Of a DNA stretch of 64,000 nt, positions 1,081-64,000 are shown one piece after another. Position 1 is the stretch's first letter; each line of letters begins with the position of its first letter. The notes under the pieces were generated by a model, which did no database searches, was not told the origin of the DNA, and saw only the letters and a program-made list of their open reading frames with translations. This DNA is from Aporrectodea caliginosa (lineage: Eukaryota > Annelida > Clitellata > Crassiclitellata > Lumbricidae): assembly GCA_020284085.1 (NCBI GenBank), contig JACEVL010000208.1, positions 872,501-936,500 of the forward strand, read 5' to 3'. Made by a program: the position numbers and the translations under genes.

Positions 1081-1689
1081 ATCTACTATACATGTAGATG
1101 TTTTCGTGATACTTTCATCCAATCCAAGTTTTAGTCTACACAGTCGTACTCTCACGCATTTGCTGTTCCGTATCTGCAACTCAAAGTAATTGCAAGGATT
1201 ATTTCAAACATAATCAGTTCTGAGAGTAACGATGTTGTTCAGGTGGAACTGTCTTAGCAAATAAAGTTTGTTCGTTCTTTATTTGTCATAGTTAACCAGT
1301 AACGACTCTTATAGAAATAGCATCCATGAACAGCTGAAGGCGAGAGATAGATCCCAGTAGGCCTAATTTGTCGACAACATGATGAAAGGTGGAAAATAAT
1401 ATTATCACCAAAGTAGTCCCATATAAATCAACTCTTGTATGAATTTATTCTACTTGGATTTAAGTTTTATTTCGCTTTGAAAGTTATATATTCGTTTGCC
1501 CCGATAATACAGTTGAAACACCGTGAAGAATAAATGAGGGTAAGCAGACATGGCATATTGTAGGCCTACTTTGGTGGAACTACGAGTAACAATTCCAGTC
1601 ACTTATCCCGCAGATTTGGAGTTGAGGCCTAATGAGTTTATATTAGTGCAGTAGAAAACCACTGAAGACACTGGCTGCTACTGATCATC
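1081..1689. other. no recognised feature
   Basis: AT-rich, no supported ORF. It holds two copies of the octamer TAGGCCTA (1358-1365 and 1561-1568). Confidence 0.4.
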
Positions 1690-1925
1690 TGTTCTACCTA
1701 TACTTAGAAAATTAAGGAAAATGGGGCTCCCTGGCAGCGGAGCATTAGTGCTCCTTTAGGGATAACCCTTTGACACTAGGAAACCGATTGTTTATGGTAG
1801 ACAACTTTGCTGCATATTATAATATTATTGATAATTGGACTGAAGTGATTATGTACTGCTAGATTTGTTTTTTGTGTTGGTACTTGGTGTCAATAAAAAG
1901 TGTTGAATTGAATTGAATTGAAATA
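1690..1925 (+). repeat. LINE 3' UTR with TTGAA tail
   Basis: It reads CTCCCTGGCAGCGGAGCATT, then ACACTAGGAAACCGATTG, CAATAAA, and ends in a GAATT pentamer tail (about 1901-1921). This layout (GGGAxCCCGATTG, CAATAAA-like motif, short tandem tail) recurs in the 3' UTR of the LINE at 35220-36925, so I infer a LINE 3' end. Confidence 0.45.
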
Positions 1926-2156
1926 CTATAAGAGTGCTGTAGAATGTCTGTGTTACTGACGTCAATGGCTTTTGATTATAATAATAAGACGATTTTTGAA
2001 GCTAGACTAGAACTCTTCCGGTAAAATTTCGTTCTACAAAGTCTGCTCTGGATTCCACATTTCAGCTAAACAACTATCTTTTCCTGGACTCATTTCCGTG
2101 CCGCCTTGGACTCCTTATTGGCCACGAATTGACTCACATTGAAATTTGGCTTGGAC

Positions 2157-3417
2157 CAGTGTGATTCTCCTTACAGATTTTATTTAGTTATAGTTACAGT
2201 TATAGTTAATGGTTTCTTATTTTAATTACAGTTATAGTTAGTAGGCCCCTATTATTAATTTTTTCTCGTTATAGTTATAGTCATAGTCACTGACTTTTTA
2301 TTTTAGTTAGGCCTACTACTTATAGTTACAACAAGGCTACATTAAATTGCCTACAGTCGCAGGAGCTATGCATAACATTAAGACGCGTTACATAATTTTC
2401 TAAGAGCTTCGAAGACTTTGAAGAAAAAGTGCATTCAGCTTTAGGAATACACGTTACTTCGATGCCAATAAATTCATAAATTCTGATGATGAGGGGTACA
2501 TGGGCGTAGTCAGGAAATAATTTCGGAAGGAGTTTTAACGTTTTTTGGGAGGATAGCATTGGAAATTGTCGTATTTGTTTACACTTTTAGTTTTAAAAAC
2601 AGTAATGCATTTATGGGGGGGTTGAACACGTGAAACAACCCATAAATACGTCCATGGAGAGGTAGCTATTTCAGAGAAACGCTGTTAAGCCCGCAAAAAT
2701 CACCAAACACATTGAAAAAAACAGCCATTGACAGTTGATTCTGTTCATACTGAATACTAATATCTAACCGGTTTTGATTGTGTTCGTGAGTTCCCTTCTG
2801 TGCACCTCTTCTTATCGCAGACTTCTTGGTATGTAGGCTACATTACTTGGTTGGTGATACTTGAGATGATTGAGATGAGTCGTGTTTTTACCGGCTGTAA
2901 GTCGGCCACATTACTCCCCTCATTAACACCAACAACGCTGATGATCGCCTACACGAACTTTTATTTGTGCCTGATTCGTAGGCCTACTTGAATTGACTCC
3001 TGACTGCATTCCCACAGCTGCGGATGCTCAAGGTCTTTAGAGACATTTTTACTACAATACTACTACGAGTACTGAGTTTGCGAATTTGCATTAGTCAACC
3101 TCGGTCGCAATCGCTATAGAAACGTTTACAAAGTAGCTAAATTTAATAAAATGCGCCACTAGGCCTACTACTGGGTTAATTCACGAATCCAAAAACCAGG
3201 GTCAACATATAAGTCCTCCTATTTTGTCAATATTTCGCTCTTTCCATTTTTGCATTAACGAAAATAACAATGAATTGTCGTTAGTGTTATTTTCGTTATA
3301 GTCATAGTTATAGTTATTGATATATTTTAGTTATAGTTATAGTTATCGTTAACGAAATCGTTTTATTTTCGTTAACGAACATTTTCGTTACCGTTATCGT
3401 TAACGAGAATCACACTG
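2157..3417. mobile_element. hAT-type DNA transposon, CAGTGTGAT family
   Basis: The 13-bp TIRs CAGTGTGATTCTC and GAGAATCACACTG are perfect. They are flanked by a perfect 8-bp duplication GCTTGGAC (2149-2156 and 3418-3425). Eight-base target duplications and CAG...CTG ends are the hAT hallmark. Subterminal regions are built of TTATAG-type hexamers and CGTTAACG/CGTTATCG palindromic repeats. No transposase is visible, so it is non-autonomous. A smaller relative lies at 36202-36745. Confidence 0.85.
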
Positions 3418-3462
3418 GCTTGGACAACGATTTTGCATATTAGCAACCATCGACTGATTGTA

Positions 3463-3545
3463 GGCTATTGTATTTAAAGGTTTATAAAGCACCTCTCACA
3501 GTGCACACCAATCAGAGGCGCTCCCAGTGCGAAAGGCCTCGAGAA
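3463..3545 (-). repeat. CR1-like LINE 3' terminus (fragment)
   Basis: Reverse-strand sequence containing GGGAGCGCCTCTGATT then a degenerate GGTGCTTTATAAA. It matches the 3' ends of the LINE fragments at 11.9, 13.1 and 51.1 kb (GGGAGCGCCTCTGAGTAG followed by GGCGCTATATAAATT). Only the terminus is left. Confidence 0.5.
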
Positions 3546-4032
3546 TAAAGACAAGTTTTGAGGTATACCGTAGCAAAAAGATGTAGCAGGACCACAAGAT
3601 AGACTAGTGCGGTGGTGCGAACAAAGGGTGGGTGGAGTTGATTCTATAGCGAAGGGCCACTGCAGGCAAAGGCACGGGACTGAGCTATGGCCGTTCTCAC
3701 ACGAGGATATTTACTAGTTTATTCTAAAACTTTCTAATGAACTTTAATTATTCATTATCACTCATGTTAGCATTTCTGCGTTTTTGTCAGATTGTTTTTC
3801 TCAATAAACGAATATATATTGGAACAAAAGGTCAAGACGATCCGAATAGCGGAGCGGGCGAAGGGAGGCGGCCGAGGTAGGCCGACGTACTGAGTCACAG
3901 AGGTATTTAGGAGCAAGACTGACTCCCTATTCCGTTTTTTATGGATGAACTGAAGTCGGTAACTTTGTATGTTTGTGTAAAACTGTCAATTAATAGGATC
4001 GGCAAATGAGGAAAAGTAGGGCCTACATTTAA
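3546..4032. other. no recognised gene
   Basis: Contains CAATAAACGAATAT near 3803, a LINE 3'-end motif seen elsewhere in the window. No ORF of note. Confidence 0.35.
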
Positions 4033-4818
4033 CCCTCAGGCTACCGGGGTGTTTTGTAACACTGGCTACCAACGGGGGGGGGGTGTGGTTACCACCCCTC
4101 TGGATTTCGCGTTTGGTTTCACATATCATAACTTGTAATACAGCAATGGATTCAGCATTCATTTCTGAACAAAATGGTATATTTAGTTGTACATTATGTG
4201 AATGCATCTCGAAATTACATCATTTTTACAACGGAACCGATAATTAGCGATATTTTCTATTATTGCGTACATTTTGTACTTTTTGGATAAATAAATATAA
4301 GATTATGTGTGTTTTGAAACTGATCTATGTATCCAAGAACATTTTAAACATAATGATGCTTCATTTGTAACAATAACCTACAAACTAGTCCATAGTCTGT
4401 ATTAGGTACAGCGAAATTGTAATGCTGCATTCAGCCATTTTCACATATAACGCGCATTATTATTTATTTTTATCACTTCCGGTGTTCAAAAGTTAAATAA
4501 GTAAGCAAGCAAATGAAGCCCTGCATTCCCTCTATGGAATGGTATTTTTGTATCGCTTCTACAAAGAAAACTAAATAAGCTATGGTCGAAAAACTAACGG
4601 GGGGGTGGGGGTGGTGATATCCACCCTCCTCTGGTACCTCGGCTATATCGGGTATAACTTTTGAACGGCGTGAGATACCATCATGATTTTTACCTCAAAA
4701 TGTGCGCCAATGAATCTGCTACAGCTACCTAAAACGTAAAAATAATATTCCATTTGAAGAAAAAAACTTATGTATAAAAACGTAGGGGGTGGTAACCACC
4801 CCATTGGTAGCCCGAGGG
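4033..4818. mobile_element. piggyBac-type MITE, copy 1
   Basis: The ends CCCTCAGGCTACC and GGTAGCCCGAGGG are inverted repeats directly flanked by TTAA on both sides (4029-4032 and 4819-4822). This is the piggyBac signature (TTAA target, CCC...GGG ends). The interior has G/C-rich blocks with GGTGGTAACCACC-like motifs but no transposase. The 4130-4320 interval is the reverse complement of sequence in the copy at 52276-53236. Confidence 0.8.
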
Positions 4819-4822
4819 TTAA

Positions 4823-5640
4823 CTGGATGCATGCAGTAAGAGGAAGCCAATGTAGTTGTTCAAACATGAATGTAGAGATATGGGAGAATCGCTGCCATTG
4901 ATCTTGCTTCGATCGCGCCTTCGACCTCGGTGCGTGATCTCGGCGTCGTGCTGGAGAACGACTTGTCCATGAGGCGCCATGTTGCGTGGATGGTCGGCTG
5001 TTGCTTTCGTCAGCTCCGTCTCATCAGGAGCTGCATCAAGTCCTTGCCTTTCGAGGCCGCTAGAGCAGCCGTCGCTGCTTTCGTCATCTCTCAAGTGGAC
5101 CGCTGTAACAGCTTGCTGGCTGGCGCGCCTGCGTGTCTCTTGGACGGACTCCAGTCGGTGCTTAACGCCGCGGCGAGGCTCATATGTAATAGGAGGAAAT
5201 ATGATCACGTCACACCGCTCCTACGCGATGTCCTTCATTGGCTGCCTGTCCCGTTCCGCATCGAGTTCAAGCTTTGTCTGCTTGTATTCAAGGCGCTTCA
5301 TGGAGCAGCGCCTGAATATCTGCGTGACTATTGCACCGAGACTCATTCCTCTGCGTCTGGGCTGCGACTTAGATCGCTTAAGAAGACCGACCTACGCGTA
5401 CGGAGGATGAGAACGCGCTTCGGCGATCGCGCTTTCTCGGCCGCTGGTCCTAGATGCTGGAACAGTCTTCCACCCACCATCAGATCGGCCAACTCAGTAG
5501 ACTCCTTTAAATCTCAGCTTAAGACGTATTTATTCTCCAAGGCTTATCCCGCTGATTAGTCGTATGTGAGGCGCCCTTGTAGCGGTATGGCCGCGTTACG
5601 GCGCCATACAAATTGTCGTTATTATTATTATTATTATTGA
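4823..5640 (+). mobile_element. 5'-truncated CR1/L2-like LINE, reverse transcriptase C-terminus
   Basis: The open frame 4930-5559 (209 aa) gives the C-terminal part of a non-LTR reverse transcriptase protein: RDLGVVLENDLSM, the thumb-like stretch with HWLPVPFRIEFKLCLLVFKALHG and APEYLRDY, then the terminal block AGPRCWNSLPPTIRS ... FKSQLKTYLF. The catalytic YADD region is absent, so the copy is 5' truncated. Downstream GGCGCCATACAAATTGTCG leads into an (ATT)n tail at 5618-5638. The frame is intact and more GC-rich than its surroundings, which suggests a fairly recent insertion. The ATG at 4930 is not a true start. Confidence 0.85.
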
Positions 5641-6410
5641 CTGATGGCTTGAGCATTATTAAATTGGCGCTATATAAAGTTTAGAATATAAATAGTATAG
5701 TTGGCCTATTATTATATTTAGATAAAACGTCTGCTTTCCAATTGCAAAAATTGCGTCTTGAGTGAATATGAGTTGAAACCTCGTAATACGATATGAACTC
5801 CTTTTTTACGCGCAGAGAATGATGACGTCACTATAATTGGCGTCCAAGTAAGATTAAAATCTACTGCTTAAAATTTAATTAATGTTAATTGTCCGATTGT
5901 CATTCAGTTTTCACACAGTCATCATTTGTTTCTTTTTCAGTAGAATGTTCCCCTTATAATTATATTATCAGTGCAAAGTCTCACAACTTGCAGACCGCAA
6001 TTAATATTGTGGCGTTTTCATATCCGTCGTTCGTGATGTTAGTCAATATGTAAGCTAAATGTCCCTATATTTCTTCTGTAGCCTATATAAATTTTTCAGG
6101 TTTTTTCAGCGCGTTTTACATATCGCTAGAAATGACGTAGAATCTGGTGTTTATATGAATGTTTCATTTCGTCTGGTTTGCTAAGTGTGGCTTCTCTCGC
6201 ACGAAAAGTCTGTAGACGAAAAGTCTGTAGACGAATTGTCGTGACACCTTCAAGAGCTGAATCATTATTATTTGTTTTCGCAAAATAAATTAACGTAGGC
6301 TATTTGATATCTAATATATATAACGTAGGCTACTTGATATCTAATATATATAATGGTCTCTTCTTATGTTTTTGTTCGATTATTCCAATCTAAGTATCGA
6401 CTGGCTGTAA
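5641..6410. other. no recognised gene
   Basis: Mostly AT-rich. A LINE-like GGCGCTATATAAAG lies at about 5667-5681. A tandem duplication of about 35 bp (ACGTAGGCTAxTTGATATC) lies at 6293-6353. Confidence 0.4.
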
Positions 6411-6942
6411 TTTAGCGGATCCATGATCCCTTCTAGACCCCATGTAACCAGTAGGCCTACATATCAAATCATTGCCTTATTGTTTCACTGTTGTTGTTCT
6501 TATTATTGGTTACATAAATAAATGACTGATTGAAATTTACTGATTGATTAAATTAGATGATTTTGTTTATAATGCTATTTTAGCTAAGATTGTGGTAAAT
6601 TATAGTTGATTTTGTCTGTAAAGCTATTTTAGTTAAGATTTTATAGTCTTTTGTTAATGTGATTTTTAATGGATCCGTCTTATTTTATTTGGTCTTGTTT
6701 GTTATTTGTTGTTTGATTTTTGAGCCCAAGGCTTACTCTACTCTATGTATCATTGACTGTCTTTCTTTCCCTATCTGTATTTTTTGTATGTTTAGGTGTC
6801 CCTATTTAGCGGGATCCATGATCCCTTCTGGGCCTCCTTGTAGCCAGTATAATGTCAAGCCGTTGCCTTACTGTTTCATTGTTCGTTTTTTCTCTTCTGA
6901 TGGTTACAGAAATAAATGATTGATTGATTGATTTTTTGATAT
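6411..6942 (+). repeat. two LINE 3' UTRs in tandem, ATTG-tailed
   Basis: Two related segments (about 6411-6545 and 6640-6932) contain AGCGG(G)ATCCATGATCCCTTCT and end GGTTACAxAAATAAATGA(T/C)TGATTG. They are LINE 3' UTRs with ATTG tails. The open frame at 6659-6919 lies entirely in this non-coding tail and is not a gene. The array element at 6943 inserted just past the second tail. Confidence 0.5.
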
Positions 6943-7428
6943 GGTAAACCCGTAGTTTAGGTTGGTAAATTATTTTATATCGTCAAATTAAAATGGAAGC
7001 TGGATTGATGAAAAAATGGTTTCCCTAAATGAAAGTGGGATTGATGAAACCAATTATGTATTTAAATAGAAGTTGGATTGGTGGAAATAATTTTTACTGT
7101 AAATAGAAGCTGGATTGATGAAACTAAGTTTTTGATGCAATGGAAACTCGATTGAAGAAAATAATTGTTTCCGTAAGTAGAAGCTGGACCAATGAGAATA
7201 GTTCTTTGCCTAAATAAAAGTTCCATTGATGAAAAGTATTTGTTTGGTTAAATAGAAGTTGGGTCATTTTTTTCATGAAATCGAAGCTGGATTGATTAAA
7301 AAAATTTCTTCATGAAATTGAAGCGGGATTGATGATAGTTATCATGGACATAGGTAGAATGCTTACCAACGTGAAGTACGGCATTGAAGACATTCAAATA
7401 ATTTACCAACCTAAACTACGGGATAACC
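6943..7428. mobile_element. array-bearing P-like MITE, element A
   Basis: The left end GGTAAACCCGTAGTTTAGG and right end CCTAAACTACGGGATAACC are inverted repeats that continue through GTTGGTAAATTATTT. The flanks TTTGATAT (6935-6942) and CTTGATAT (7429-7436) agree at 7 of 8 bases. The interior is an array of ten units of about 37-38 bp, each with a GAAGCTGGATTGATG core and an AT-rich spacer. It closes with a unique block ending GGCATTGAAGACATTCAAAT. There is no coding capacity. The superfamily is inferred from the THAP-bearing relative at 48527-51612. Confidence 0.75.
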
Positions 7429-7747
7429 CTTGATATTATGTCCGAGTCTAAATAAAGATAAAACTGGCGATAAAACTGGCGGAATTCTGATTCTGTCTCC
7501 CAGATTATGTCTTTTTATATTGGGATTACAGTGGTTTTTTATTTTGTTTGGTTAACAAGGAATAAATAAATGCAAGAAAAAGTTATATGCAGTTATTCTT
7601 AGATTTTTACTGCAAAAGTTAAATGACTGGCGACGTTGGATAAAAATTTCAATGCACAGAAACTTGCAGGAGATTCAGTGTTTTCAACACTATCTTTGAG
7701 CAGAAACTCATACCTAGAGGTCAAACTTAGGCAATTCATAATCATCA
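7429..7747 (+). other. upstream region of the zinc-finger gene
   Basis: AT-rich, presumably promoter and 5' UTR of the gene at 7748. No TATA box can be chosen with confidence. An in-frame TAA at 7739-7741 precedes the start codon. Confidence 0.3.
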
Positions 7748-9010
7748 ATGATGTCGGAAAGCATTTCTCCCATGCATTCGTTAGAAGATTCCATGGGAAT
7801 TGCAACACAAAAAAAGAAAGAAAGTGCCCAGCTGTTTCAGAAATCAATTGTGCTGGAGAGTTATAGACTTAGGAAGGAAAACAAGAAGAACCATTCAAAA
7901 GCAAAGACACACGAATGCGAGTTTTGCAAAACAATATTTACGCACACTTGTATACAAAAGCACATGAGAATCCATACTGGAGAAAAACCATACCATTGCC
8001 TTGTATGTGAGAAAACATTCTCAAGCTCTTCGCATCTGAAAACACACACTAGAACCCATACTGGAGATAAACCATTTCAATGCGATATATGCCAAAAAAT
8101 ATTTTCTCATTCTTCCAGTCTACGGCAACATATTAGAATCCATACTGGAGAGAGACCTTTTCAATGCCATTTATGTCAAAAGAGTTTTTCCACATCTTCA
8201 AGTCTAACATTTCATGCAAGAATTCATACTGGAGAAAAATCTTACCAATGCCAACTCTGTCAAAAACGTTTTCCCGAATCTTCACATCTAAAACGTCATG
8301 CAAGAATTCATACCGGGGAGAAATCTTACCAATGCCAAGTATGTCAAAGACATTTTTCCCAATCTTCACATCTAACACGTCATGCAAGAATTCATACTGC
8401 AGTGAAACCGTACCAATGCCAATTATGTGAGTATAAAACTAAGTGTGATGGTGATGTAAAGAAGCACATGAGAATACATACTGGAGAGAAACCATACCTT
8501 TGTCGGCTATGTCAGAAAACATTCTCAGACATTTCAGGTCTGAGAAGTCATTCCAACACTCATTCTGGAGAGAAACCATTTCTGTGTAGTCTTTGTAATA
8601 AAACATTTTCCACATCTTCAATGCTACGAACGCATTTTAGAATTCATACTGGAGAGAGACCATACCAATGTCAGATATGTAAAAAAAGTTATTCCCAATC
8701 TTCTCATCTGCGAAATCATGTTCGAATACATACTGGAGAAAAACCATACCAATGCCAGACATGTCAGAAACGGTTTATCAGATCCTCTCATCTACAGACA
8801 CATGCAAGAATTCATACCGGGGAGAAACCATACCACTGTCAATTATGTGTGTTTAAAACTAATAATAAAAGTGATCTAAAGAGGCACTCGACAACACATA
8901 CCGGAGAGAAACCATATCTTTGCCAGATATGTATGAAAACGTTCTCGAGCGCATCAGGTCTGAGAAGTCATGAAAAATCCCTCACTTTGTGTGGCTCAAA
9001 GTTGCAATAA
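7748..9010 (+). CDS. C2H2 zinc-finger protein, 12-13 fingers
   Basis: A 420-residue protein, presumably a nuclear DNA-binding regulator. Residues 1-54 are a basic leader without a recognisable KRAB, SCAN or BTB domain. From residue 55 to about 410 twelve complete C2H2 fingers follow each other, joined by TGEKP/TGERP-type linkers. A thirteenth finger has both cysteines and one histidine but lacks the second histidine. Fingers 7 and 12 are of a different subtype (CxxC followed by EYKT or VFKT) with linkers on either side, dividing the array into blocks. One linker is altered (HTAVKP before finger 7) and two read TGEKS. The start is the first ATG after an in-frame TAA at 7739-7741; the ORF is uninterrupted, so the gene is intronless or this is its main exon. 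Worn finger sequence continues past the stop. DNA target unknown. Confidence 0.9.
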   Translation: MMSESISPMHSLEDSMGIATQKKKESAQLFQKSIVLESYRLRKENKKNHSKAKTHECEFCKTIFTHTCIQKHMRIHTGEKPYHCLVCEKTFSSSSHLKTHTRTHTGDKPFQCDICQKIFSHSSSLRQHIRIHTGERPFQCHLCQKSFSTSSSLTFHARIHTGEKSYQCQLCQKRFPESSHLKRHARIHTGEKSYQCQVCQRHFSQSSHLTRHARIHTAVKPYQCQLCEYKTKCDGDVKKHMRIHTGEKPYLCRLCQKTFSDISGLRSHSNTHSGEKPFLCSLCNKTFSTSSMLRTHFRIHTGERPYQCQICKKSYSQSSHLRNHVRIHTGEKPYQCQTCQKRFIRSSHLQTHARIHTGEKPYHCQLCVFKTNNKSDLKRHSTTHTGEKPYLCQICMKTFSSASGLRSHEKSLTLCGSKLQ

Positions 9011-9570
9011 CATTTTCCAAGGTTTGCAGTCTGCAAAATTATTTTGAATCCATATTATTTTCAGAAAAGCCATACTAATTCCAGTTATAGCGGTACCAGA
9101 GAACATTCTCATTCGATTATTTCGCGTATGTGAGGAAAGATTTTACGCAATGCCTCTGAAATATACGAATGAACCCTTAATGGAGAGAAATATTCTGTGT
9201 CAGGTTGTAAAAAATCACTATCGCGATCTGCAAGTCTACAAAGAAACCAAAGTCTCTGGGAAAATAACCTGAAATATTTGACGTTAGGCCTATTGACGTT
9301 CACCACCAAAAGTTGGTGAATGGAGCAGGCAAATGGATACGCACGAACGAATTCATGCAGTTAAATTTTCTATTCTAAGTAAGAGCTTTAATTCAGTTCA
9401 ACTGAGTATTACTGTTTGACTGGATAAATTCAAGGATCCTGCTTTTGTTTTGAGTTTTTGGGACATTTTTAGTTGAATTTAGGTAGGCTTGTTAATTTTG
9501 TTATGCTTTTGTCTAGTTAGGCACTTTACTCCATCGAACTGTTTTTATTATTGTGATTTCCTCTTTAAAT
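9011..9570 (+). pseudogene. degenerate fingers and duplicated tail of the zinc-finger gene
   Basis: Past the stop codon, finger-like sequence continues in broken frames. Near 9185-9255 a finger can be read with GEK, a lost first cysteine (VSGC), a KKSLSRSASLQ core and lost histidines. The protein was once longer. About 9180-9570 is similar to 655-1080. The 9285-9292 TAGGCCTA is an insertion relative to the other copy. Confidence 0.5.
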
Positions 9571-9814
9571 TTTCAACACAGCAAACAAGAATTAAAATGA
9601 TTACACATATAAATACGTGTATAAAGAAATAACAGAAAACATAACTTACACTTGTAACTCTTACACTTAAGTTTGCAAAAAGAATTTTTGAATTACGTTT
9701 TCTAACTTCTTTGTCTTAGGTAGTGCAGTTGCTTTGTTAACAGCACTATTTCTCGCTGCTTCGAGCCAAGCAAAGTGTACTTTTCTACATTCCATGCCAT
9801 AAGAGACGGATCAT
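9571..9814. other. no recognised feature
   Basis: AT-rich sequence without supported features. Confidence 0.4.
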
Positions 9815-9873
9815 TTATCATCATCATCATCATCATCGTCATCATCATCTTCATCATCATCATCATCATCATA
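9815..9873. repeat. (TCA)n / (ATG)n microsatellite
   Basis: About twenty trinucleotide units with two interruptions. On the minus strand it follows the hAT remnant as an (ATG)n tract. The Met- and Ile-rich frames over it are artefacts. Confidence 0.9.
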
Positions 9874-9874
9874 A

Positions 9875-10175: not shown

Positions 10176-10200
10176 AAACTCTGCACAGCAATGCAACATG

Positions 10201-11635: not shown

Positions 11636-11639
11636 TTTG

Positions 11640-53236: not shown

Positions 53237-53240
53237 TTAA

Positions 53241-54660: not shown

Positions 54661-54779
54661 TAAGAATATTTAATTCATGATGGAGGTAGCGGTGTCTTTT
54701 CGCGTATTTTATTATTTCTCTTATCTGGCTTATTCACGAAAATTATTGTTTCCGTTAATAGAAATGGTATCCTGACAAT

Positions 54780-55768
54780 GGTAATCCCGTAGTTTAGGTT
54801 GGTAAATTATTTTATATCGTCAAATTAAAATGGAAGCCGGATTAAGGAAAAAAATTGTTTCACTAACTCGATGTGGGATTGATGAAACCATTTCTGTCTT
54901 TAAATAGAAGTTGGATTGATCGAAATAATTTTTACCGTAAATAGAAGCTGGATTGATGAAACTATGTTTTTGATGCAATAGAAGCTGGAATGATTAAAAT
55001 AATTGGGTAATCCCGTAGTTTAGGTTGGTAAATTATTTTATATCGTAAAATTAAAATGAAAGCTGGATTAAGCGAAAAAATTGTTTCACTAACTGGAAGT
55101 GGGATTGATGAAACCATTTCTGTCTTTAAATAGAAGTTGGATTGATCGAAATAATTTCTACCGTTAATAGAAGCTGGATTGATGAAACTAAGTTTTTGAT
55201 GCAATAGAAGCTGGAATGATGAAAATAATTGTTTCCGTAAGTAGAAGCTGGACCCATGAGAATAGTTCTTTGCTTAAATAAAAGTTACATTCATGAAAAA
55301 TATTTTTTGTGTTAAATAGAAGTTGGCTAATTTTTTTCATGAAATGGACGCTGGATTGACTAAAAAAATTCTCGATGAAATGGAAGCGGGATTGACGATA
55401 GTTATCATGGATATAGGTAGGTTGCTTACTTACCAACGTGAAGTTCGGTATTGAAGATATTCAAATAATTTACCAACCTAAACTACGGGATTACCAATAA
55501 CTGTTTCCGTAAGTAGAAGCTGGACCCATGAGAATAGTTCTTTGCTTAAATAAAAGTTTCATTGATGAAAAATATTTTTTGTGTTAAATAGAAGTTGGCT
55601 AATTTTTTTCATGAAATGGAAGCTGGATTGATTAAAACAAATTTTCCATGAAATGGAAGCGGGATTGACGATAGTTATCATGGACATAAGTAGATTGCTT
55701 ACTTACCAACATGAAGTTCGGTATTGAAGATATTCAAATAATTTACCAACCTAAACTACGGGATTACC
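54780..55768. mobile_element. array-bearing P-like MITE, element B outer
   Basis: Ends GGTAATCCCGTAGTTTAGG and CCTAAACTACGGGATTACC, flanked by the perfect 8-bp duplication CTGACAAT (54772-54779 and 55769-55776). Its array is interrupted after unit 5 by a second copy (55006-55495). Confidence 0.85.
55006..55495. mobile_element. array-bearing P-like MITE, element B inner (self-nested)
   Basis: Ends GGTAATCCCG and CGGGATTACC, flanked by AATAATTG (54998-55005) and AATAACTG (55496-55503), 7 of 8 matching. The target is the spacer after unit 5 of the outer copy, so the element hit its own family. Ten array units. Confidence 0.85.
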
Positions 55769-55929
55769 CTGACAATTCCCCCCCGGACAATTCCCGGACA
55801 TTTCCCCCAAGCAGGAAGTAGGTAACTCGGCATTCTATTAGTTTCCCGGACCGCAACCTACCGCCACCTCCCGAATGTTTATGCCGGTAACTCTACCATT
55901 GTCCATGATAACTGTTACTAATCCAACTT

Positions 55930-56427
55930 GGGTACTCCCGTAGTTTAGGTTGGTAAATTATTATTTTATATCGTCAAATTAAAATGGAAGCTTGATTAAG
56001 CGAAAAAATTGTTTCACTAACTCGAAATGGGATTAATGATACCATTTCTGTCTTTAAATAGAAGTTGGATTGATCGGAATAATTTTTACCGTAAATAGAA
56101 ACTGGATTGACGAAACTAACTTTTTGATGCAATAGAAGCTGGAATGATGAAAATAATTGTTTCCTGAAGTAGAAGCTGGACCCATGAGAATAGTTCTTTG
56201 CTTAATTAAATAAAAGTTCCATTCATGAAAAATATTTTTTTTTTAAAATAGAAGTTGGATAATTTTTTTCACGAAATGGAAGCTGGATCGATGAAAAAAT
56301 GCCTCGATGAAATGAAAGCTGGATTAATGATAGTTATCATGGACATAAGTAGATTGCTTACTTACCAACGTGAAGTACGGCATTGAAGACATTCAAATAA
56401 TTTACCAACCTAAACTACAGGATAACC
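55930..56427. mobile_element. array-bearing P-like MITE, element C
   Basis: Ends GGTACTCCCGTAGTTTAGG and CCTAAACTACAGGATAACC, flanked by TCCAACTT (55922-55929 and 56428-56435); one base at the left border is ambiguous, so the duplication is 8-9 bp. The target is an array unit of element D in reverse orientation. Ten units inside. Confidence 0.8.
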
Positions 56428-56859
56428 TCCAACTTCTATTGAAGCAAAGATTATTTTTCATCAATCCAACTTCTATTTAAGCAAAGATTATTTTTCATCA
56501 ATCCAATTTCTATTTAAAAGACGAATTTCTTTCATAAATCCAGCTTTTATTTCGGTAAAGAATTTGTTCACCAATCAAACTTCTATTTAAGCATAGAATT
56601 TGTTTCATCAATCCAGCTTCTATCTAAGAAAAATTATTTCTTTCATCAACCCAACTTCTGTTAAAGTAGAGAATTATTTTTATCAGTCCAACTTCTGGGG
56701 GAAACGTCCGGGGGGGAATTGTCCGGGGGAAATGTCCTAGACCCAATAGAAATATGACGAGTGCGAGCGTTAAACCATTAAGTTTTTTTTACTAATTTTC
56801 AGAAAGTTTTACTAACTAATCACTCAACTGTGGATGAAGAACAGGCATTCTACTATAAT

Positions 56860-57000
56860 GAGCAGCAATGAAATTATGTTCCATAATATAGAAACGTTAA
56901 ATATCTAGGTTCTGTTGTTACTTATAGCAAGGATATGAAGAAGACGAATAACATTCTGTTAGAGCTTCAAAAGCATTTGTAAGACAAAGTCTACATATCA
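56860..57000 (+). pseudogene. possible LINE RT fragment
   Basis: NVKYLGSVVTYSKDMKKTNN followed by ILLELQKHL resembles the 'F.YLGS.......' segment just after the YADD box of RTE-like LINEs. Short, with stops around it; weak. Confidence 0.25.
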
Positions 57001-57094
57001 TTAATCTGCATCAAGACCATTACAGCAGATATATTTGACTACAACTGTCGCTGTTGTCTCCTTCTTCATCTTCAGTTAAAAACATACTGAACAC

Positions 57095-58235
57095 TTGCAT
57101 AAAGGTGTGCTATTATACAAAGGTTGGATGGTTTCAGTGTATCGTCATAGAGTATCCATACTGGAGAAAAACCGTGAAATTATCAGTGAGGCAAGTAGCC
57201 TGGTGATTAATACAAGAATCGAGATAGGAGACAAACAACACATGTGCCAGATGTGTTGGAAGTCATTTACCGCAGGTAGTAATCTAAACATGCATATGAG
57301 AACCATACTGGTGAAAAACCATACAGCTGCCAGTTAAGTCAGAAACTATTTCCTGATCTTAGTACTCTGAAAATGGACACGAGAACCGACACTGGTGAAA
57401 AAAATGCAGGTGCCAGTTATGTGATAAAACATTTGCTAATCACAGTCATCTGAAAACGCACATGAGAACCCATAATGGTGAAAAACCATACACGTGCCAG
57501 TTATGTCAGAAATCATTTTCTCAAAGTGGTCAAGTGAAAGTGCACATGAGAATCCATACTGGCGAAAAACCATATATGTGCCAGTTATGTCAGAAATCAT
57601 TTGCTAGAGATGGTAATCTGAAAAAGCACATGAGAACCCATACTGGTGAAAAACCATACAACTGCCAGTTATGTCAGAAATCATTTGCTGATCGTAGTAC
57701 TCTGAAAAATCACATGAGGACCCATACTGGTGAAAAACCATACACATGTGAGGTTTGTAATAAAGGCTTCTCACGCATTGGAAATCGTAATAAACACAGA
57801 AGAACTCATGCAACTGAGATGCAACGCATGCACAATAAACCTTGCACCAAGCACAGTTCTTCAGCAGGGCAGCTTAAACTCCATGCAGGAACGAAGCCGC
57901 AGGATCTTGAAACGGAAAATGAAATAATTGCTTAACAGTCTGATCATTATGTCACATCTATTAGTACAGACATTATTGACAAATCAAATGAACGTTTTCG
58001 AAAGAACATATATCCGGATTCCTGTGAAATTGCAGGTCCTTTACAGAAAATTAGAGATGGAGAATGTCTGTACATTAGCAAATTCAAATATCCAGTAGAC
58101 GCAAAAGCGTCTTTGTCAAAATCTTTTGGATGCGGTATATGTGACGAATTGTTTGAAACAGAGAAGGAATTTTTAGAGCATTGTTCTAGCCATCGATTTT
58201 CTCCACCTGACGACTTACTTAGTAACCTGTGTTGA
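57095..58235 (+). pseudogene. decayed C2H2 zinc-finger gene, paralogue of 41367-42857
   Basis: Fingers are readable throughout, but the frame breaks. An IHTGEKP linker near 57154-57174 lies in a different frame from what follows. A finger at 57240-57295 leads to a one-base deletion at about 57304 (AGAACCAT versus AGAACCCAT elsewhere). The next finger has lost a Cys and two His. A second one-base loss near 57409 restores the frame of 57462-57932, which has four good fingers (CQLCQKSFSQSGQVKVHMRI and so on) with TGEKP linkers and one worn finger. TAA at 57933 stops it, yet the same frame stays open for another 99 codons to TGA at 58233. That part ends in CGICDELFETEKEFLEHC, the terminal module of the protein at 41367-42857. 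Two frameshifts and a nonsense codon argue for a pseudogene; 57462-57932 could still be expressed as a short protein. Confidence 0.8.
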
Positions 58236-58950
58236 ATTAATTATTATTCCACATACTGACAGCTTGAAACAATTGTAATCTTAGATAAGAACAGATGTTA
58301 TAATGTTAGGATGCATACATACATTGGTAGTTAGACAGTAGGCATTCTGATGTAGAGAATACAGAGATTCCTTCTTTTAGTCATCACTTATCTGAGGTTT
58401 GCCTTTTTATCAAATAATTGTTAGACTGTGACATTACTGCAGGTGATCGAAATGAAATTTTATGCTATTGTTATTAAAGACTCAGTAGTAAGGTGTTTCG
58501 TTCTGTATTCCACTATTTAACATCATAATTGTTATATATTAAACTTAGCTGTAGAAATACTTCTGCTTGACTGGAAATTTAACAGAGATCTTGGCTACAT
58601 ATCATTTTGTGATGCTGTTTTAGACTTGATACTTAGCCTATTGTCGTTGCAATCATTATGTATTCCTCAATATAATTAATTCTCTTATTCTACTTTGATT
58701 ATGTGTTGCACGGTATCTTTGGTCATTATGAAGGATAGAGTAAGATTGTAAGCATCATTAACGATATCCTGAATATTTGAAGTTTAATTATCTTTTTTGA
58801 TTTGTATTGAACATTAACATTAACTTGCATATACTTATATTTCTGTGAATGGAATATGACATATATTTGTTTAATACACTGAAATTTTATACTTCACATT
58901 GATCTTTTTCATCTAATATATACTGGATTAGGTTATAATAATCTTTTCTT
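58236..58950. other. 3' flank of the zinc-finger pseudogene, nothing else recognised
   Basis: AT-rich, no supported ORF or repeat up to element E. Confidence 0.35.
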
Positions 58951-59527
58951 TTTTATCCCGTAGTTTAGGTTGGTAAATTATTTGAATGTCTTCAATGCCG
59001 TACTTGACGTTGGTAAATAAGCAGTCTACCTATATCCATGATAACTATCATAAATACCGCTTTCATTTCATCGTGAAATTTTTCATCAATCCAGCTTCCA
59101 TTTCGTGAAAAAAATTATCCAACTTCTATTTAACCAACAAAATATTTTTCATCAATGGAACTTTTATTTATGCAAAGAACTATTCTCATGGGTCCAGCTT
59201 CTACTTACGGAAACAATTATTTTCATCATTCCAGCTTCTATTGCATAAAAAACTGAGCTTCATCAGTCCAGCTTCTATTTATGGTAAAATTCTATCCATA
59301 ATATTTTTTAATAGAAGTTGCGCCTTTTTTTCATGACATGGAAGCTGGATTGATTAAAAAAAATTCTTCATGAAATGGAAGCAGGATTCATGATAGTTAT
59401 CATGCACATAGGTAGACTGCTTACTTACCAACGTAAAGTACGGCATTGAAGACATTCACATGATTTAACGTAAAATACGGCATTGAAGACATTCACATGA
59501 TTTACTAACCTAAACTACGGGATAACC
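58951..59527. mobile_element. array-bearing element E, foldback derivative
   Basis: Both halves carry the right-hand end of the family, in opposite orientation: the left half begins with ATCCCGTAGTTTAGGTTGG and TCTTCAATGCCGTACTTGAC, the right half ends with the complementary blocks. The array units point one way up to about 59290 and the other way after it. The right flank is CTTTTACC (59528-59535); the left (58943-58950, CTTTTCTT) matches at five positions, and the outermost GG has become TT. The target is the start of repeat copy Y. In the right half the terminal GTAAAxTACGGCATTGAAGA block is duplicated. Confidence 0.7.
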
Positions 59528-59529
59528 CT

Positions 59530-59935
59530 TTTACCGAATTAGCATTATGGCTATATTGGCCAGTAATATTAGACAAAATTTCCCCATTGAATCATTCTTA
59601 CCTGAGGATAATTTTTTTAGAAAATACAAACAATAACTTCTAAAATGATGGCGCATTGGATAATACACCGGCATACAGAGCGAGAGGTACCGAGATCGAG
59701 GACCGTACGCGGATAAGATTTAAATCTTCTGTCATTTGTGTTCTTGTGAATTGTTTCAATTGCGTAATTGTACACTGTAACCGGTTGCGGTTTGTCAACC
59801 GGATTGTTTCAATAAAGAATATTATTATTATTATATATTAAACATTAATTCTATATGCTACCATATTATGCTACTAGAGGTCGTTGATTAAGACGAGCCA
59901 GCATAATTATGACGTCACAATCAACGACCTCATGG
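59530..59935. repeat. unclassified long repeat, copy Y, first part
   Basis: Matches 51714-51930. It is interrupted at about 59655-59825 by a LINE 3' end (TGTAACCGGTTGCGGTTTGT, CAATAAAGAATATT and an ATT tail). Confidence 0.6.
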
Positions 59936-60039
59936 TCAAACTAGACGTAGGCCATAGACATCTTATATATAACTAGATGTTTGCCCGTCCTAAGACGGTT
60001 GAAAGAAACGTTTACTCCAATGTGCAAATTGAGCATGAC

Positions 60040-60340
60040 ATTAGTAAGTAAGTGTGTTCTTTATTAAACACTGGCAAACGCACAGCGCTGTACATACAAA
60101 GTTATCAAATAGTTGCAGAAAAGTTAGTAAATAATAATGAAACTACTGCTTCTTCTGCTGATAATTAAACTAAAAACATTGTGGCCTAGCTGTACAACAT
60201 CCAAGCCAGGAAACAGCGCCTGGTGAGGGAATCAAATCTAGAAAGAACACGGTTGTGTGCGCCTTGGTGCAGATCTTGACAGTATATAAAAAAAGGGGCT
60301 AGGAGGTAATGGAGGATATGTCCAGGATGACTAAAGGTCT
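60040..60340 (-). repeat. LINE 3' end inserted in the Helitron tail
   Basis: A reversed TTAC tail (about 60041-60052) followed by GTTCTTTATTAAACACTGGC is the layout of other reversed LINE ends here. It may extend to about 60330; the border with the Helitron is not sharp. Confidence 0.4.
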
Positions 60341-60347
60341 TGAAAGT

Positions 60348-61368
60348 TCATGAAATTGCGAAAATCTCATTGTAAACAATGTTTTGCGTATAAATCTTTT
60401 CGTTGTTTTGAAGTTTTCCTTGAAGATGGCCTTCTTTGATAAAAACTGTCAACTCGTGTGGATTCTTAGATCTTGATAACGCAACGTAGAGTTGGCCATG
60501 AGAGAAGACTGGCTCATTCAAATGGACACCTACATATTCAAATGTTTGCCTCTGAGATTTGTTGATGGTCATTGCATATGCAGGAATGATTGGAAATTGG
60601 CGTCGTTTCAAGATAAATGGAAGATTGATGTCACTTGGTGCCAAATCAATTCGTGGAATAAAAACCACATCGCCTCTGTTGCATTGAGAAACAATTTCTG
60701 CTGTGATGAAATGATTGTGAAGCGATTTGATAACCAGCCGGGTTCCGTTGCAAAGTCCTTTTTTTGGATTTAAATTGCGGAGGAGCATAATAATTATTCC
60801 GACTTTCAGCAGCAATCTATGGGGTGGCATTCCTGAAGGTGTTTGTTGATGAAGGAACTCTGGCGGATAATTCAATTCGTCTGCTGGATCTTCGGAAGTG
60901 ATTGAATCGGCGCTGTTGTAAACATGAAGTGTTCCAGGAAGTTTGTCAATAATCTCAATGTTCATTTGAAGTGTGTCTTTGTTCGTTGGGGCTAAAATGG
61001 CACGTCGTGCAAGATCTTCAATTGGTATTTCATTTATATTTTGGCCATAAATCGAATCGATGAGATTGTCGCTAATGACCATTTCACTTGGTATTTGAAT
61101 TGAGTTCCTTGGTACTCCTGGTAACTCTGGCAAATTTCCTGAGCCAACATTCAACAGCCACTGATTATGCTCATTTCGACCTTCACTTCGCATGTTTGTT
61201 ACTAATGAGAGTTTTGTAAAAAGGTACCACAAATCGCTTGATTTTATGCAGCTCTCGATGACATCTACACGTGTACCTCTTGCAACTACAGGTAACTACA
61301 GGTAAGGTTTGTCGGAAATCTCCACCGATTACAACAACTTTGCCTCCAAATGGAAATTCAGATTTCAT
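60348..61368 (-). pseudogene. Helitron Pif1-like helicase, frameshifted C-terminal part
   Basis: 61368-61294 reads FPFGGKVVVIGGDFRQTLPV, the helicase 'GGDFRQ.LPV' motif. Frame 61232-60348 (294 aa) follows: LFTKLSLVTNMR, PVQ-like loop sequence, LRNLNPKKGLCNGTRLVI (conserved NGTRL), AYAMTINKSQRQTFEYVGV (family AxTINKSQGQT, here R for G) and HGQLYVALSRSKNPHELTVF (motif VI). The frame break is a 10-bp tandem duplication AACTACAGGT at 61284-61293 and 61294-61303; taking out one copy joins the two parts. Rep and N-terminal helicase parts are not visible upstream, so the element is 5' truncated or diverged. Inactive. Confidence 0.85.
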
Positions 61369-61546
61369 AATGTCACGAAGCAGACGATCTATGCAACGGA
61401 AACCTAACTGACACTCACAAGCCCAGTAAACTTACCCACTATATACATCTGCCCGCGATATTATAAGTTTGCAGTTCAAATTCCTTCAATTACGGCTTAC
61501 CAATAAATTTATCAATATTTCACGTAAAACAAATGCAACGCGAAGT

Positions 61547-61793
61547 TAGAAAGAAACAGCTTACGTAAATAATTATTTTAATCAATCCAGCTTCTATTGA
61601 AACGAAAACTTAGTTTCATCCATCCAGCTTCTATTTACGGGAAAAATGATTTCGATCAGTTAATATTCTGTTTAAACACAGGAATGTTTTCATCATCCCA
61701 ATTCCATTTAGGGAAACAATTTTTTAATCGATCCAGCTTCCTTTTTAAAGTGACGATATAGAATAATTTAGCAACGTAAAATACGGTTGAACC
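61547..61793 (-). mobile_element. array element H, truncated
   Basis: Reversed. The end GGTTCAACCGTATTTTACG (from 61793) then TTGCTAAATTATTC resembles the ends of elements F and G. About six TCAATCCAGCTTCTATTT-type units follow, and the other end is missing. Confidence 0.6.
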
Positions 61794-61799
61794 GATAAT

Positions 61800-62060
61800 T
61801 GCATATACTAACTAATGAAGTAAAGAACTGAGAGGGGTATCGAAAGAATGTAAAAAATATAGTAAAGTACGAATAAATACTATATTTATTTTAACATCGA
61901 TCAAAACAAAGAATGTTACAAAAACATAGAAATGGAAAGCATAGAAATGTGAAACGAAAAAGCGTTAATTGCTGCCCTCTGGCGATTCAATTTTTTAAAA
62001 CGGTCATACTTCGATTCTTTGAAAAACTTAATCGATAAGGTGGTGTGGTTGAACACGACT
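61800..62060. other. no recognised feature
   Basis: AT-rich, nothing supported. Confidence 0.4.
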
Positions 62061-62064
62061 TTAC

Positions 62065-62520
62065 AGAACTGACTCTAACGAAGGTACTGACCACCTTCGG
62101 AAAGTTCGGAGGTTCGCTGTTTGTCGCCGTCTATCGAATGACGCACGCGAATCGCCTTCGGCGATTGGCGTGGTCCTCTAACTAAGGTACTTTGCTGTTT
62201 GTCGCCGTCTATCGAATGACGCACGCGAATCGCCTTCGGCGATTGGCGTGGTCCTCTAACTAAGGTACTGACCACCTTCGGTGGTTTGCTGTTTGTCGCC
62301 GTCTATCGAATGACGCACGCGAATCGCCTTCGGCGATTGGCGTGGTCTTGTAACGAAGGTATGGCGTGGTCCTCTAACGAAGGTAGCCTACTCAGCACCT
62401 TCGGTGGTTCGCTGAATGACGCACGCGAAACGCCTTCGGCGTTTGGCGTGGACAGCACGCGAAACGCCTTCGGCGTTTGGCGTGGCCCTCTGTTTGTCGC
62501 CATCTGGCGAATGACGCAGT
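62065..62520. repeat. minisatellite with hairpin-forming units
   Basis: Units of about 85-90 bp with GTTTGTCGCCGTCTATCGAA, TGACGCACGCG and TGGCGTGGTCCTCTAAC start near 62114, 62197 and 62290; shorter variants follow to 62520. Each unit includes a hairpin such as AATCGCCTTCGGCGATT or AACGCCTTCGGCGTTT. Frames here are repeat artefacts. Confidence 0.85.
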
Positions 62521-62759
62521 GAGAAGTGACGCTTGAAGACAGAAAGACGCACGTTCATTTCTGTTTCATTATATTATTAACTAGACAGAGCTTCCTGTGT
62601 TGAGCTGCCCAGTGACGTCGAAGCAGCCGATGATGGGCGATAATAGAACATAAAACAGAGAGTACATGGTATGCGCGTCTAAATATAGATATCGATGCGC
62701 AATCATACGTCAATGGGGAGCCAACATGGCGCCCAGCCAAAACAGTAACGAGGCTTCAG

Positions 62760-64000
62760 TAAAAATCACGTGATACCACCGGCCTGACGTAGGCCCTAAT
62801 ATTTGAAGAACACTGTTAAGCAAAAGCTTTTATAGCGCCATGCTTTATTGAGTGATCCATCGGTCGCTGGTCACTTTAATATTAAAAATCGTTGCTCAGC
62901 TGTGAAGGAACGCATCAAAAAAGAATTAGCAAATGTCATGACCTGCAGCATGTATTGACCGATGTGGTGCTGCTTGTTGGTTTATGGAATATTCTTACAC
63001 ATAATGAGAGATCATGGCATGTCTACTTATGCGCTGCATGACGTTGCTATGGCAACCACTGTGTCAAACCTAATGTATGCCTCCCCTGCCTGGTAGGGGT
63101 ATGCCAGTGAGAATGAAATGGATAAATTACAAAGTATGCTAAACAGGATGAAGCTTATTTACTACCCCAAGCGTTGTAGGTAACTCGATCCCAAGTCGCT
63201 GATTCTGGCTTAGCCTATTTGGGATTAGGCCTATTTGTCGGGAACCACGTCATAATTATGTTCTCCGAGGAATCTTCCCACCTACACAGCGAAACAAAAT
63301 AATAATTATAAAGTACGTCCTCGAATTCCTAATTTTATTCTCCCCATTAATGATAAATGTAGGCTAATTACCGCGAATCGTGTTTAAATATATATATATT
63401 AATTGTGACATAATTACTTATATTTTTCTTGAATCATTAACTCTGGCATGAGTCTATTAACTAATCGTGTTTCTTGTAACCTGTTGCGTTTTGTCAAAAC
63501 TGGATTATTTTTAAATTAAACGAATATTGATTGATAATAGCAGTTTTGCAGCTTTATAAAATATTGTAGTAGGCAACAGCAACTTGCTGTAGTAAGTTGC
63601 TGTGCATTGATTAAAATTTGAATCGAAATATGGCGGTAGGCTACCTATATCGATTAAAATCTAATTCTAAAATAATTGCTAGTCGATTCACTGCAGCTAA
63701 TTCTATTCTAATTCTAATTGATTAGCTACAAGATTTTACTAATTCTAATCGATTAGCAATTGCAGCTAGACGTTGCCTACATGTAGGCTACACATGTATG
63801 GTAACCATTCAGTCACTTTTAAATTTGGAGAACTTGCACACTGTGTTAGTGGGCTATAATGAACCAGCTCTCCATTAGTCTGTTCACTTCATTCTTCCTA
63901 TTAGGCTACTATTTAAGTGTCAGAAATAGAAATTTTGCAAATGGCACTGTTAATAGTTTGTATAAGTCTAACTCTTTAGTGCTCTGGCACGTTTACATTT
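62760..64000. repeat. unclassified long repeat, copy Y, second part
   Basis: 62785-63000, 63535-63620 and 63650-63980 match copy X at 51940-52140, 52140-52230 and 53960-54310. A LINE (63025-63535) interrupts it. Near 63655-63760 both copies have a simple ATTCTAATCGATTAGC-type stretch. Confidence 0.6.
63025..63540 (+). mobile_element. LINE RT C-terminal fragment and 3' end
   Basis: DVAMATTVSNLMYASPAW, a stop in place of the second Trp (TGGTAGGGG), then GYASENEMDKLQSMLNRMKL and IYYPK. This is the 'ASPAWWG' region of jockey/CR1-like proteins, as in the LINE at 46384. The 3' end is TGTAACCTGTTGCGTTTTGT and AAACGAATATTGATTGA. Frames are broken further on. Confidence 0.65.

What the first reader, a model, noticed from the sequence alone, without database searches (positions are those of the whole stretch)
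1358..63233. Palindrome TAGGCCTA occurs 28 times and behaves as a scar at TA sites
Counted by eye; below one copy is expected in 64 kb of AT-rich DNA. Where a comparison is possible it is an extra 6 bp beside a TA. At 13399 it adds RP within the LINE peptide YR-IASLV. At 34655 it puts a stop in V-YKAIHG. At 9285 it is absent from the duplicate at 655-1080 (ACGCTATTAACG). At 51981 it is absent from copy Y. The form TA-GG-CC-TA looks like the footprint of a Tc1/mariner-like element (TA target, GG...CC ends, 2-base overhang left after excision). Shortened forms TAGGCTA and TAGCCTA are also common, as with imprecise repair.
Basis: partly seen in the sequence, partly recalled or inferred. Interest (0 to 1): 0.85.

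Follow-up and report, generated by a model that had tools for sequence, protein, structure and literature searches.

The report
Genome-wide GGCC scars at TA sites
An animal genome seems to carry hundreds of thousands of tiny, near-identical insertions that turn TA into TAGGCCTA, most likely scars left where a jumping gene landed and was cut out again, although the jumping gene itself has not been found.

Summary
Confirmed and extended. TAGGCCTA occurs 28 times in the window (100 shuffles: mean 0.43, maximum 3) and 120 times in 334.7 kb of the same 1.10-Gb genome (3.3 expected). It needs TA on both sides and arises by insertion: copies without it have one TA where it has TA-GGCC-TA. In 18 aligned copies of a young repeat, 12 are empty, 2 carry +6, 3 carry related inserts (one copy carries two), 1 carries another insert. 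TAGGCTA/TAGCCTA share its RTAY target preference, so one process probably makes both. Insert sizes fit two ends trimmed independently to 1-3 G. Extrapolated: about 0.75 million scars, 0.8% of TA sites. Best explanation (0.6): excision footprints of a TA-targeting cut-and-paste transposon with GG...CC ends. Against: no such donor in up to 306.5 kb; the three transposon copies with readable ends begin CGAGGG or CAGGGT. Main rival: a donor-free break-and-insert process.

The parts
1358..1365 (.). TAGGCCTA scar
1561..1568 (.). TAGGCCTA scar
2308..2315 (.). TAGGCCTA scar; paralogue 36468-36745 lacks it but the alignment is ambiguous
2979..2986 (.). TAGGCCTA scar
3160..3167 (.). TAGGCCTA scar
6452..6459 (.). 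TAGGCCTA scar; paralogue 6804-6927 has TATA (4+1 bp shorter)
9285..9292 (.). TAGGCCTA scar; exact 6-bp insertion relative to 657-1058
10965..10982 (.). two TAGGCCTA scars 10 bp apart
11361..11368 (.). TAGGCCTA scar
11381..11388 (.). TAGGCCTA scar, 20 bp from the previous one
13399..13406 (.). TAGGCCTA scar; 6 bp longer than the related copy L031:9244-9630
29622..29629 (.). TAGGCCTA scar
29633..29640 (.). TAGGCCTA scar, 11 bp from the previous one
30468..30475 (.). TAGGCCTA scar
30641..30648 (.). TAGGCCTA scar
30908..30915 (.). TAGGCCTA scar
32008..32015 (.). TAGGCCTA scar
32166..32173 (.). TAGGCCTA scar
33334..33341 (.). TAGGCCTA scar in a young high-copy repeat (33255-33395); 12 of 18 aligned copies are empty here
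34305..34312 (.). TAGGCCTA scar
34655..34662 (.). TAGGCCTA scar
39686..39693 (.). TAGGCCTA scar
40236..40243 (.). TAGGCCTA scar
45597..45604 (.). TAGGCCTA scar
50245..50252 (.). TAGGCCTA scar
51981..51988 (.). TAGGCCTA scar; absent from 62797-63004 (gap 6 or 10 bp)
63226..63233 (.). TAGGCCTA scar
63902..63908 (+). TAGGCTA, 5-bp form; exact 5-bp insertion relative to 54040-54274
51669..51675 (+). TAGGCTA, 5-bp form; absent from 45674-45744 and 54647-54711 (could also be a tandem duplication of GGCTA)
47853..47864 (+). two overlapping TAGGCTA (GGCTA GGCTA); shorter in neighbouring repeat units, alignments vary
4017..4025 (+). TAGGGCCTA, 7-bp form
47407..47415 (+). TAGGGCCTA, 7-bp form
62790..62798 (-). 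TAGGGCCTA, 7-bp form
2834..63790. The other 29 TAGGCTA/TAGCCTA sites (33 in all against 6.3 by chance, so roughly one in five is expected to be a chance match); coordinates listed

Best explanation
TAGGCCTA is the footprint of a cut-and-paste transposon of Tc1/mariner type. The element inserts at TA, preferring RTAY, and duplicates the TA. When it is cut out, the staggered cut leaves 1-3, usually 2, terminal bases (G on each strand) on both flanks; end joining fuses them to TA-G(1-3)C(1-3)-TA. A 3-base stagger with GGC ends, annealing through GC or through a G.G mismatch, would also give the two commonest products. SHOWN: insertion at TA with a second TA, size spectrum, shared target preference, recent origin. 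INFERRED: the transposon, its GG...CC ends, and the joining step. The donor would be a low-copy, very mobile family whose insertions are nearly always excised before they are fixed, so scars far outnumber elements.
For: Insertion: in the 18-copy alignment of a young repeat 12 copies read CCATATTACATTTACTG, 2 have +6 at the second TA, 1 has +5 there, 1 has GACCTA there, 1 has two +5 inserts at the first and third TA, 1 has an unrelated +4. Of 7 TAGGCCTA sites with a good partner in the sample, 4 show an exact 6-bp gap, against 13 of 1274 other TA-N4-TA sites; a fifth is +7 with one partner and exactly 6 with another; a sixth is 33334, resolved. TA on both sides: of 16 palindromic flanks of GGCC only TA is high (106 against 2.8; the others 0-5 against 0.4-5.4). 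Flank +1 preference is alike in 6-bp and 5-bp forms (C 0.37 and 0.38 against 0.18; G 0.08 and 0.10 against 0.17). Class counts fit independent ends (deviance 10.7 over 14 cells). Nested scars such as TAGGCTAGGCTA exist. DDE_3 and DDE_Tnp_4 transposase matches, some in identical-scoring copies without stops, are in the genome. Sleeping Beauty leaves footprints identical to its overhangs (PMC7827188, passages); in C. elegans taCATGta is a Tc1 footprint (PMC3520976, passage).
Against: No donor seen: no TAGG-starting 13-mer lies in more than 4 independent places of 266.5 kb; TIR scans of 266.5 and 306.5 kb gave no multi-copy TA-GG...CC-TA element; generic transposase motifs found nothing convincing in 306.5 kb. 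Of five transposon copies read, two (L067, L069) had no readable ends and three had other ends: TA-CGAGGG (L068), TA-CAGGGTGG (L070, L071). Loss of a whole overhang (TAGGTA/TACCTA), expected from imprecise joining, shows no target signature. With RTA...TAY sites only, the independent-end fit is poorer (deviance 16.2). Three inserts at three TAs within about 10 bp in two near-identical copies ask for a hot spot or very local hopping. One of the 7 sites (L035:429, in a microsatellite) classed as substitution; 2308, 6452 and 51981 do not give a clean 6-bp gap; of 9 partnered 5-bp sites only 1 is an exact 5-bp gap.
Confidence: 0.6

Rival explanations
1. A donor-free mutational process: breaks at RTAY with a 2-base stagger are filled in, each 3' end receives 1-3 G (mostly 2) from a terminal-transferase-like activity, and the ends are joined. 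No transposon is involved.
For: No donor seen in 266.5-306.5 kb. Ends look independent, G only, mostly 1-3 long. Local clusters, including three events at adjacent TAs.
Against: Untemplated tailing would be expected to give a broad length spread with many zeros (recall); here 2 dominates (58-62%) and 0 is 8-9% in the fit, without target signature. A TA on both sides plus a fixed palindromic core is typical of transposon footprints. I know of no enzyme with this specificity (recall).
Confidence: 0.22
2. Germline-limited elements bounded by TA-GG...CC-TA are removed from somatic cells in a programmed way, so an assembly of somatic DNA shows only scars.
For: Explains many scars without visible donors.
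Against: Nothing here tests germline DNA. Variable joints would make somatic tissue mosaic. Scars are sparser in repeats recognisable within the sample (0.15 against 0.45 per kb), which fits slow accumulation (inference).
Confidence: 0.04
3. The palindrome is a selected binding site (transcription factor or chromatin protein) that arose by substitution and is kept.
For: Palindromic, sharply defined, very frequent. A comparable frequent palindrome, TACATGTA in Phytophthora, was read as a binding site by its authors, who considered and set aside a transposon footprint (PMC3520976, passages).
Against: Comparable copies mostly differ by an insertion. The 5- and 7-bp forms share its target preference. 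Flanks are unrelated to each other.
Confidence: 0.04
4. Sequencing, assembly or library artefact.
For: Source method unknown.
Against: The motif is copy-specific in near-identical repeats, is accompanied by an excess of one-substitution derivatives (127 against 89.4) and is rarer in repeats recognisable within the sample; a technical error should do none of these.
Confidence: 0.03
5. The scars come from a different TA-duplicating cut-and-paste superfamily or an extinct family, not Tc1/mariner in the strict sense.
For: None of the readable ends of the DDE_3 elements fits.
Against: The nearest GG-ended group, ISL2EU, duplicates AT (PMC4482050, passages), and ATGGCCAT is not enriched (1 against 5.0).
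Confidence: 0.07

Closest known systems
Tc1 excision footprint of C. elegans (TA-CATG-TA)
   Same: TA on both sides, 4-bp palindromic core with two bases from each end; PMC3520976 calls taCATGta motifs rare footprints of Tc1 excision and PMC13148408 gives a +4 scar as the typical (78%) somatic footprint (passages read).
   Different: Core is GGCC, not CATG; about 0.75 million extrapolated copies rather than rare; donor unknown; variation by one base rather than loss of a whole overhang.
Sleeping Beauty / mariner footprints (3-base overhang)
   Same: Footprint equals the overhang bases (PMC7827188, passages); a 5-bp insert such as TAGGCTA/TAGCCTA has this geometry (inference).
   Different: Here the 4-base core is at least as common as the 3-base core (excess 117 against 98); ends differ.
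ISL2EU / PIF-Harbinger (PHIS) transposons
   Same: ISL2EU TIRs usually begin GG (PMC4482050, passages).
   Different: ISL2EU duplicates AT (target A|AT|T) and PIF/Harbinger TWA; the scars here have TA and ATGGCCAT is not enriched.
HIP1 highly iterated palindrome of cyanobacteria (GCGATCGC)
   Same: Very over-represented 8-bp palindrome in genomes (PMC4390886, start of abstract in the listing).
   Different: HIP1 is discussed there in connection with DNA methyltransferases; here the motif arises by insertion at TA.

Membership tests
Tc1/mariner-type excision footprint | Target is TA and both sides of the scar carry TA | tested here: met
   Only the TA flank is strongly enriched; empty sites have a single TA
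Tc1/mariner-type excision footprint | Scar is an insertion relative to an empty site | tested here: met
   4 of 7 comparable sites exact 6-bp gap, 1 of 7 substitution, control 13 of 1274; 18-copy alignment
Tc1/mariner-type excision footprint | Core made of terminal bases of both ends, with limited size variation | tested here: inconclusive
   GC, GGC/GCC, GGCC, GGGCC spectrum fits independent ends, but that these are transposon ends is inferred
Tc1/mariner-type excision footprint | Resident element with the matching ends TA-GG...CC-TA | tested here: inconclusive
   Not found in 266.5-306.5 kb; five copies read, none matches, two without readable ends; whole genome not searched for this
Tc1/mariner-type excision footprint | DDE transposases of this superfamily present in the genome | tested here: met
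   PF13358: 150 scored of 2223 candidates, several without stops
Tc1/mariner-type excision footprint | Excision observed experimentally | not testable with these tools
   Needs living material
ISL2EU footprint | Target-site duplication AT | tested here: not met
   ATGGCCAT 1 against 5.0, TAGGCCTA 106 against 2.8
PIF/Harbinger footprint | Target-site duplication TWA | tested here: not met
   AAGGCCTA/TAGGCCTT, implied by a TAA or TTA duplication, 11 against 6.7

The most novel reading that the evidence does not exclude
An endogenous, recently active process adds GGCC and a second TA to RTAY sites all over an animal genome without any resident donor element: either a host or captured enzyme that breaks and tails DNA, or elements that never stay. 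It would be a sequence-specific natural insertional mutator that has marked about 0.8% of all TA sites.
Probability: 0.22. Interest if true: 0.9.

Novelty: new variant of a known kind. Interest (0 to 1): 0.74.

Why it matters
If these are excision footprints, the movements of one family left about three quarters of a million datable marks in one genome (extrapolation). That would be a record of insertion-and-loss that ordinary repeat annotation cannot see, because the elements are gone. It would let one measure target choice, joint repair and excision rate in a natural germline, and would name a recognisable source of short indels (5 of 52 six-base gaps in one scan of the sample). If there is no donor, it points to an unknown sequence-specific insertional mutation process. 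Either way it is a warning that an over-represented palindrome can be a scar rather than a binding site.

Tried and rejected
Longer repeat carrying the motif: rejected, flanks are unrelated apart from the three close pairs, and 104 of 120 sites lie outside repeats found within the sample. Substitution origin: rejected as the general origin. ISL2EU: rejected on the duplication. A pure 3-base GGC stagger: kept only as a variant, since it does not predict GC or GGGCC forms. Telomere-like origin: none of the telomere-like repeats tried, except three TAGGCTAGGC, occurs in 306.5 kb, so untestable. Other species: the triple motif gave 11 stretches of viral contigs and 27 of GTDB contigs, all local clusters or short arrays (L010 and L054 have a few further copies outside the cluster); L008 looks phage-like by its reading frames (my reading, no family search). 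LINE protein scans found no relatives in either collection. So taxonomic spread is unknown. I have an untested recollection that TAGGCCTA-rich sequence occurs in other marine animals; no call supports it. Literature: TAGGCCTA gives 182 papers, of which 40 listings were seen; searches also listed no paper that describes this phenomenon. Microsatellite-paper mining gave no usable taxon signal. The age estimate assumes equal loss at all eight positions.
Full report
What is there. TAGGCCTA occurs exactly 28 times in the 64-kb window; 100 shuffles gave a mean of 0.43 and a maximum of 3. It is the most frequent 8-bp palindrome there and about 47 times its order-1 expectation. TAGGCTA/TAGCCTA occurs 33 times against 6.3 and TAGGGCCTA 3 times against 0.24. 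The window lies in a 1,097,852,775-bp assembly, G000, at C207:872501-936500. Encoded proteins (Mab-21-like, C2H2 zinc fingers, reverse transcriptase) suggest an animal; the species is not known to me. In 28 further stretches (280 kb, none on contig C207) plus the window, 334.7 kb without N, I count 120 TAGGCCTA against 3.3, 127 TAGGCTA/TAGCCTA against 28.6, 15 TAGGGCCTA against 1.35, 0 TAGGCGCCTA, and little for TAGGTA (148 against 127) or TAGCTA (76 against 61). Twenty order-2 simulations never exceeded 7 TAGGCCTA.

It is an insertion at TA. Of 16 palindromic flanks of GGCC only TA is high (106 against 2.8 in 266.5 kb; the other 15 between 0 and 5, with CC, CG and GG at 3-5 against less than 1). 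In alignments between related copies within the sample, 7 TAGGCCTA sites had a partner with good flanks: 4 have an exact 6-bp gap (L020:3267, L031:8802, window 9285, window 13399); 1 is +7 with one partner and exactly +6 with another (L020:3964); 1 is window 33334, discussed next; 1 (L035:429, in a CA-rich microsatellite) classed as substitution. Of 1274 other partnered TA-N4-TA sites 13 show a 6-bp gap. The script dropped near-tandem copies; two L029 sites that match each other fell out that way. Outside that strict set, 6452, 2308 and 51981 are insertion-like but not clean. The 5-bp form has fewer clean cases: 1 of 9 partnered sites is an exact 5-bp gap (63902), 1 is a substitution, and the other 7 are mixed, several of them in minisatellites or microsatellites. 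L031 near 7004 shows a clean 5-bp gap against L025 but only 1 bp against L032.

The clearest case. The repeat at window 33255-33395 gave 1303 first-look candidates in the genome; of the 40 scored, 35 are 135 bp long, against 141 for the window copy. I fetched 16 of the 40, including all four others of odd length, and aligned them with the window copy and L035. Over about 120 bp they are nearly identical. Twelve of 18 read CCATATTACATTTACTG. The window copy and L072 have +6 (GGCCTA) after the second TA; L076 has +5 (GGCTA) there; L073 has GACCTA there; L035 has +5 (GCCTA) after the first and again after the third TA; L075 has a different +4 (ATTA). The query carried the insert, so copies with it rank high, and these proportions are not frequencies. 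L072 and the window copy, and L073 and L076 (which share another change), may share inserts by descent. So at least three separate inserts fell on three TAs within about 10 bp of a very young repeat.

One process probably makes all forms. The base after the scar is C in 0.37 (6-bp) and 0.38 (5-bp) of flanks against 0.18 around TA in general; A falls to 0.21 and 0.18 from 0.31, G to 0.08 and 0.10 from 0.17. The preferred target is thus RTAY. The 15 TAGGGCCTA sites look alike (C 0.40); TAGGTA/TACCTA does not; TAGCTA shows it weakly (C 0.30). If each end keeps 0-4 G independently, the 14 classes fit with about 8% zero, 26% one, 62% two, 4% three (deviance 10.7); restricted to RTA...TAY sites the values are similar but the fit is poorer (16.2). 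A 3-base GGC stagger would explain GGCC (annealing through GC) and GGC/GCC (G.G mismatch) but not the GC and GGGCC forms. Both are end-joining models; the first covers more of the data.

Age and load. One-substitution derivatives are in excess by 38 (127 against 89.4) where steady state would give about as many as the exact copies (117 in excess) (inference). A simple model gives ongoing insertion for 0.06-0.125 substitutions per site, or a burst at 0.03-0.05. Together with inserts in near-identical repeats this says recent or ongoing. Scars are sparser in repeats recognisable within the sample (16 of 120 sites in 30% of the sequence; 0.15 against 0.45 per kb), as expected if such repeats are younger and older DNA has had more time (inference). 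Excess scars number about 229 in 334.7 kb, hence about 0.75 million in the genome and 0.8% of TA sites; full 6-bp forms about 0.38 million (extrapolation from 0.03% of the genome). Counts vary between 25 stretches of 10 kb (variance 3.7 times the mean). Close pairs (30 bp or less) number 23 against 14.6 when regional density is kept, a weak excess.

Mechanism. A second TA, a small palindromic core with limited end variation and the RTAY preference are what Tc1/mariner-type insertion and excision could give. Sleeping Beauty footprints equal the overhangs (PMC7827188, passages) and taCATGta is a Tc1 footprint (PMC3520976, passage). The missing piece is the donor. No TAGG-starting repeat end is frequent in the sample, and generic transposase motifs matched nothing convincing in 306.5 kb. 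The genome holds DDE_3 and DDE_Tnp_4 matches, some in identical-scoring copies without stops, but the three copies with readable ends begin CGAGGG (L068) or CAGGGTGG (L070, L071); L067 and L069 had none I could read. This need not be fatal: if an element is excised much faster than it can be fixed, nearly every insertion ends as a scar. By my own estimate, assuming 3-10 substitutions per 10^9 sites and generation (inference), one excision per 10-50 gametes over ten to thirty million generations would suffice, with few elements present at any time. The rival is a process without donor; the preference for 2 G and the scarcity of zero-length ends speak against random tailing.

Novelty. Excision footprints are known; a genome marked by one footprint at this density, with the donor not visible, is not described in what I could search (for TAGGCCTA only 40 of 182 listings were seen, and most subscription journals are not held). 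I therefore call it a new variant of a known kind. Whether it occurs in other species could not be tested here.

Noticed in passing
sample of 334.7 kb (window plus L012-L036, L064-L066): TACATGTA is also in excess (69 against 10.7) without the RTAY flank signature; microsatellites or genuine Tc1-type scars.
   Followed up: partly
G000: A DDE_Tnp_4 family with 23 identical-scoring copies, 21 of them with a 422-residue open frame: looks recently active.
   Followed up: no
G000; L067: A DDE_3 family with 12 identical-scoring 355-residue open frames; no terminal inverted repeats visible in the 2.1 kb read.
   Followed up: partly
16104-20111: Arrays of 237-246 bp and 93 bp tandem repeats; no TAGGCCTA between 13407 and 29621.
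   Followed up: no
43546-43822: Perfect ATTG microsatellite, 69 units.
   Followed up: no
6987-7188, 47567-47854, 48841-49203, 54780-56696: Related tandem units of 33-37 bp (AAATAGAAGCTGGATTGATGAAA...) in several places, some in inverted orientation.
   Followed up: no
L075 (C163:1221384-1221542): A +4 insert ATTA at the same stretch as the scars, not of the GGCC type.
   Followed up: no
7742-9010, 41367-42881, 57399-57935, 60348-61295: Long open zinc-finger-like frames (only 41367-42881 was scanned against Pfam) and a Pif1-type helicase frame, possibly of a Helitron.
   Followed up: partly
L018:4337-5287: Mab-21-like protein 96% identical over 75% of its length to a protein on a public (ENA) contig of 13.7 kb, so a close relative may be in public data.
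   Followed up: no
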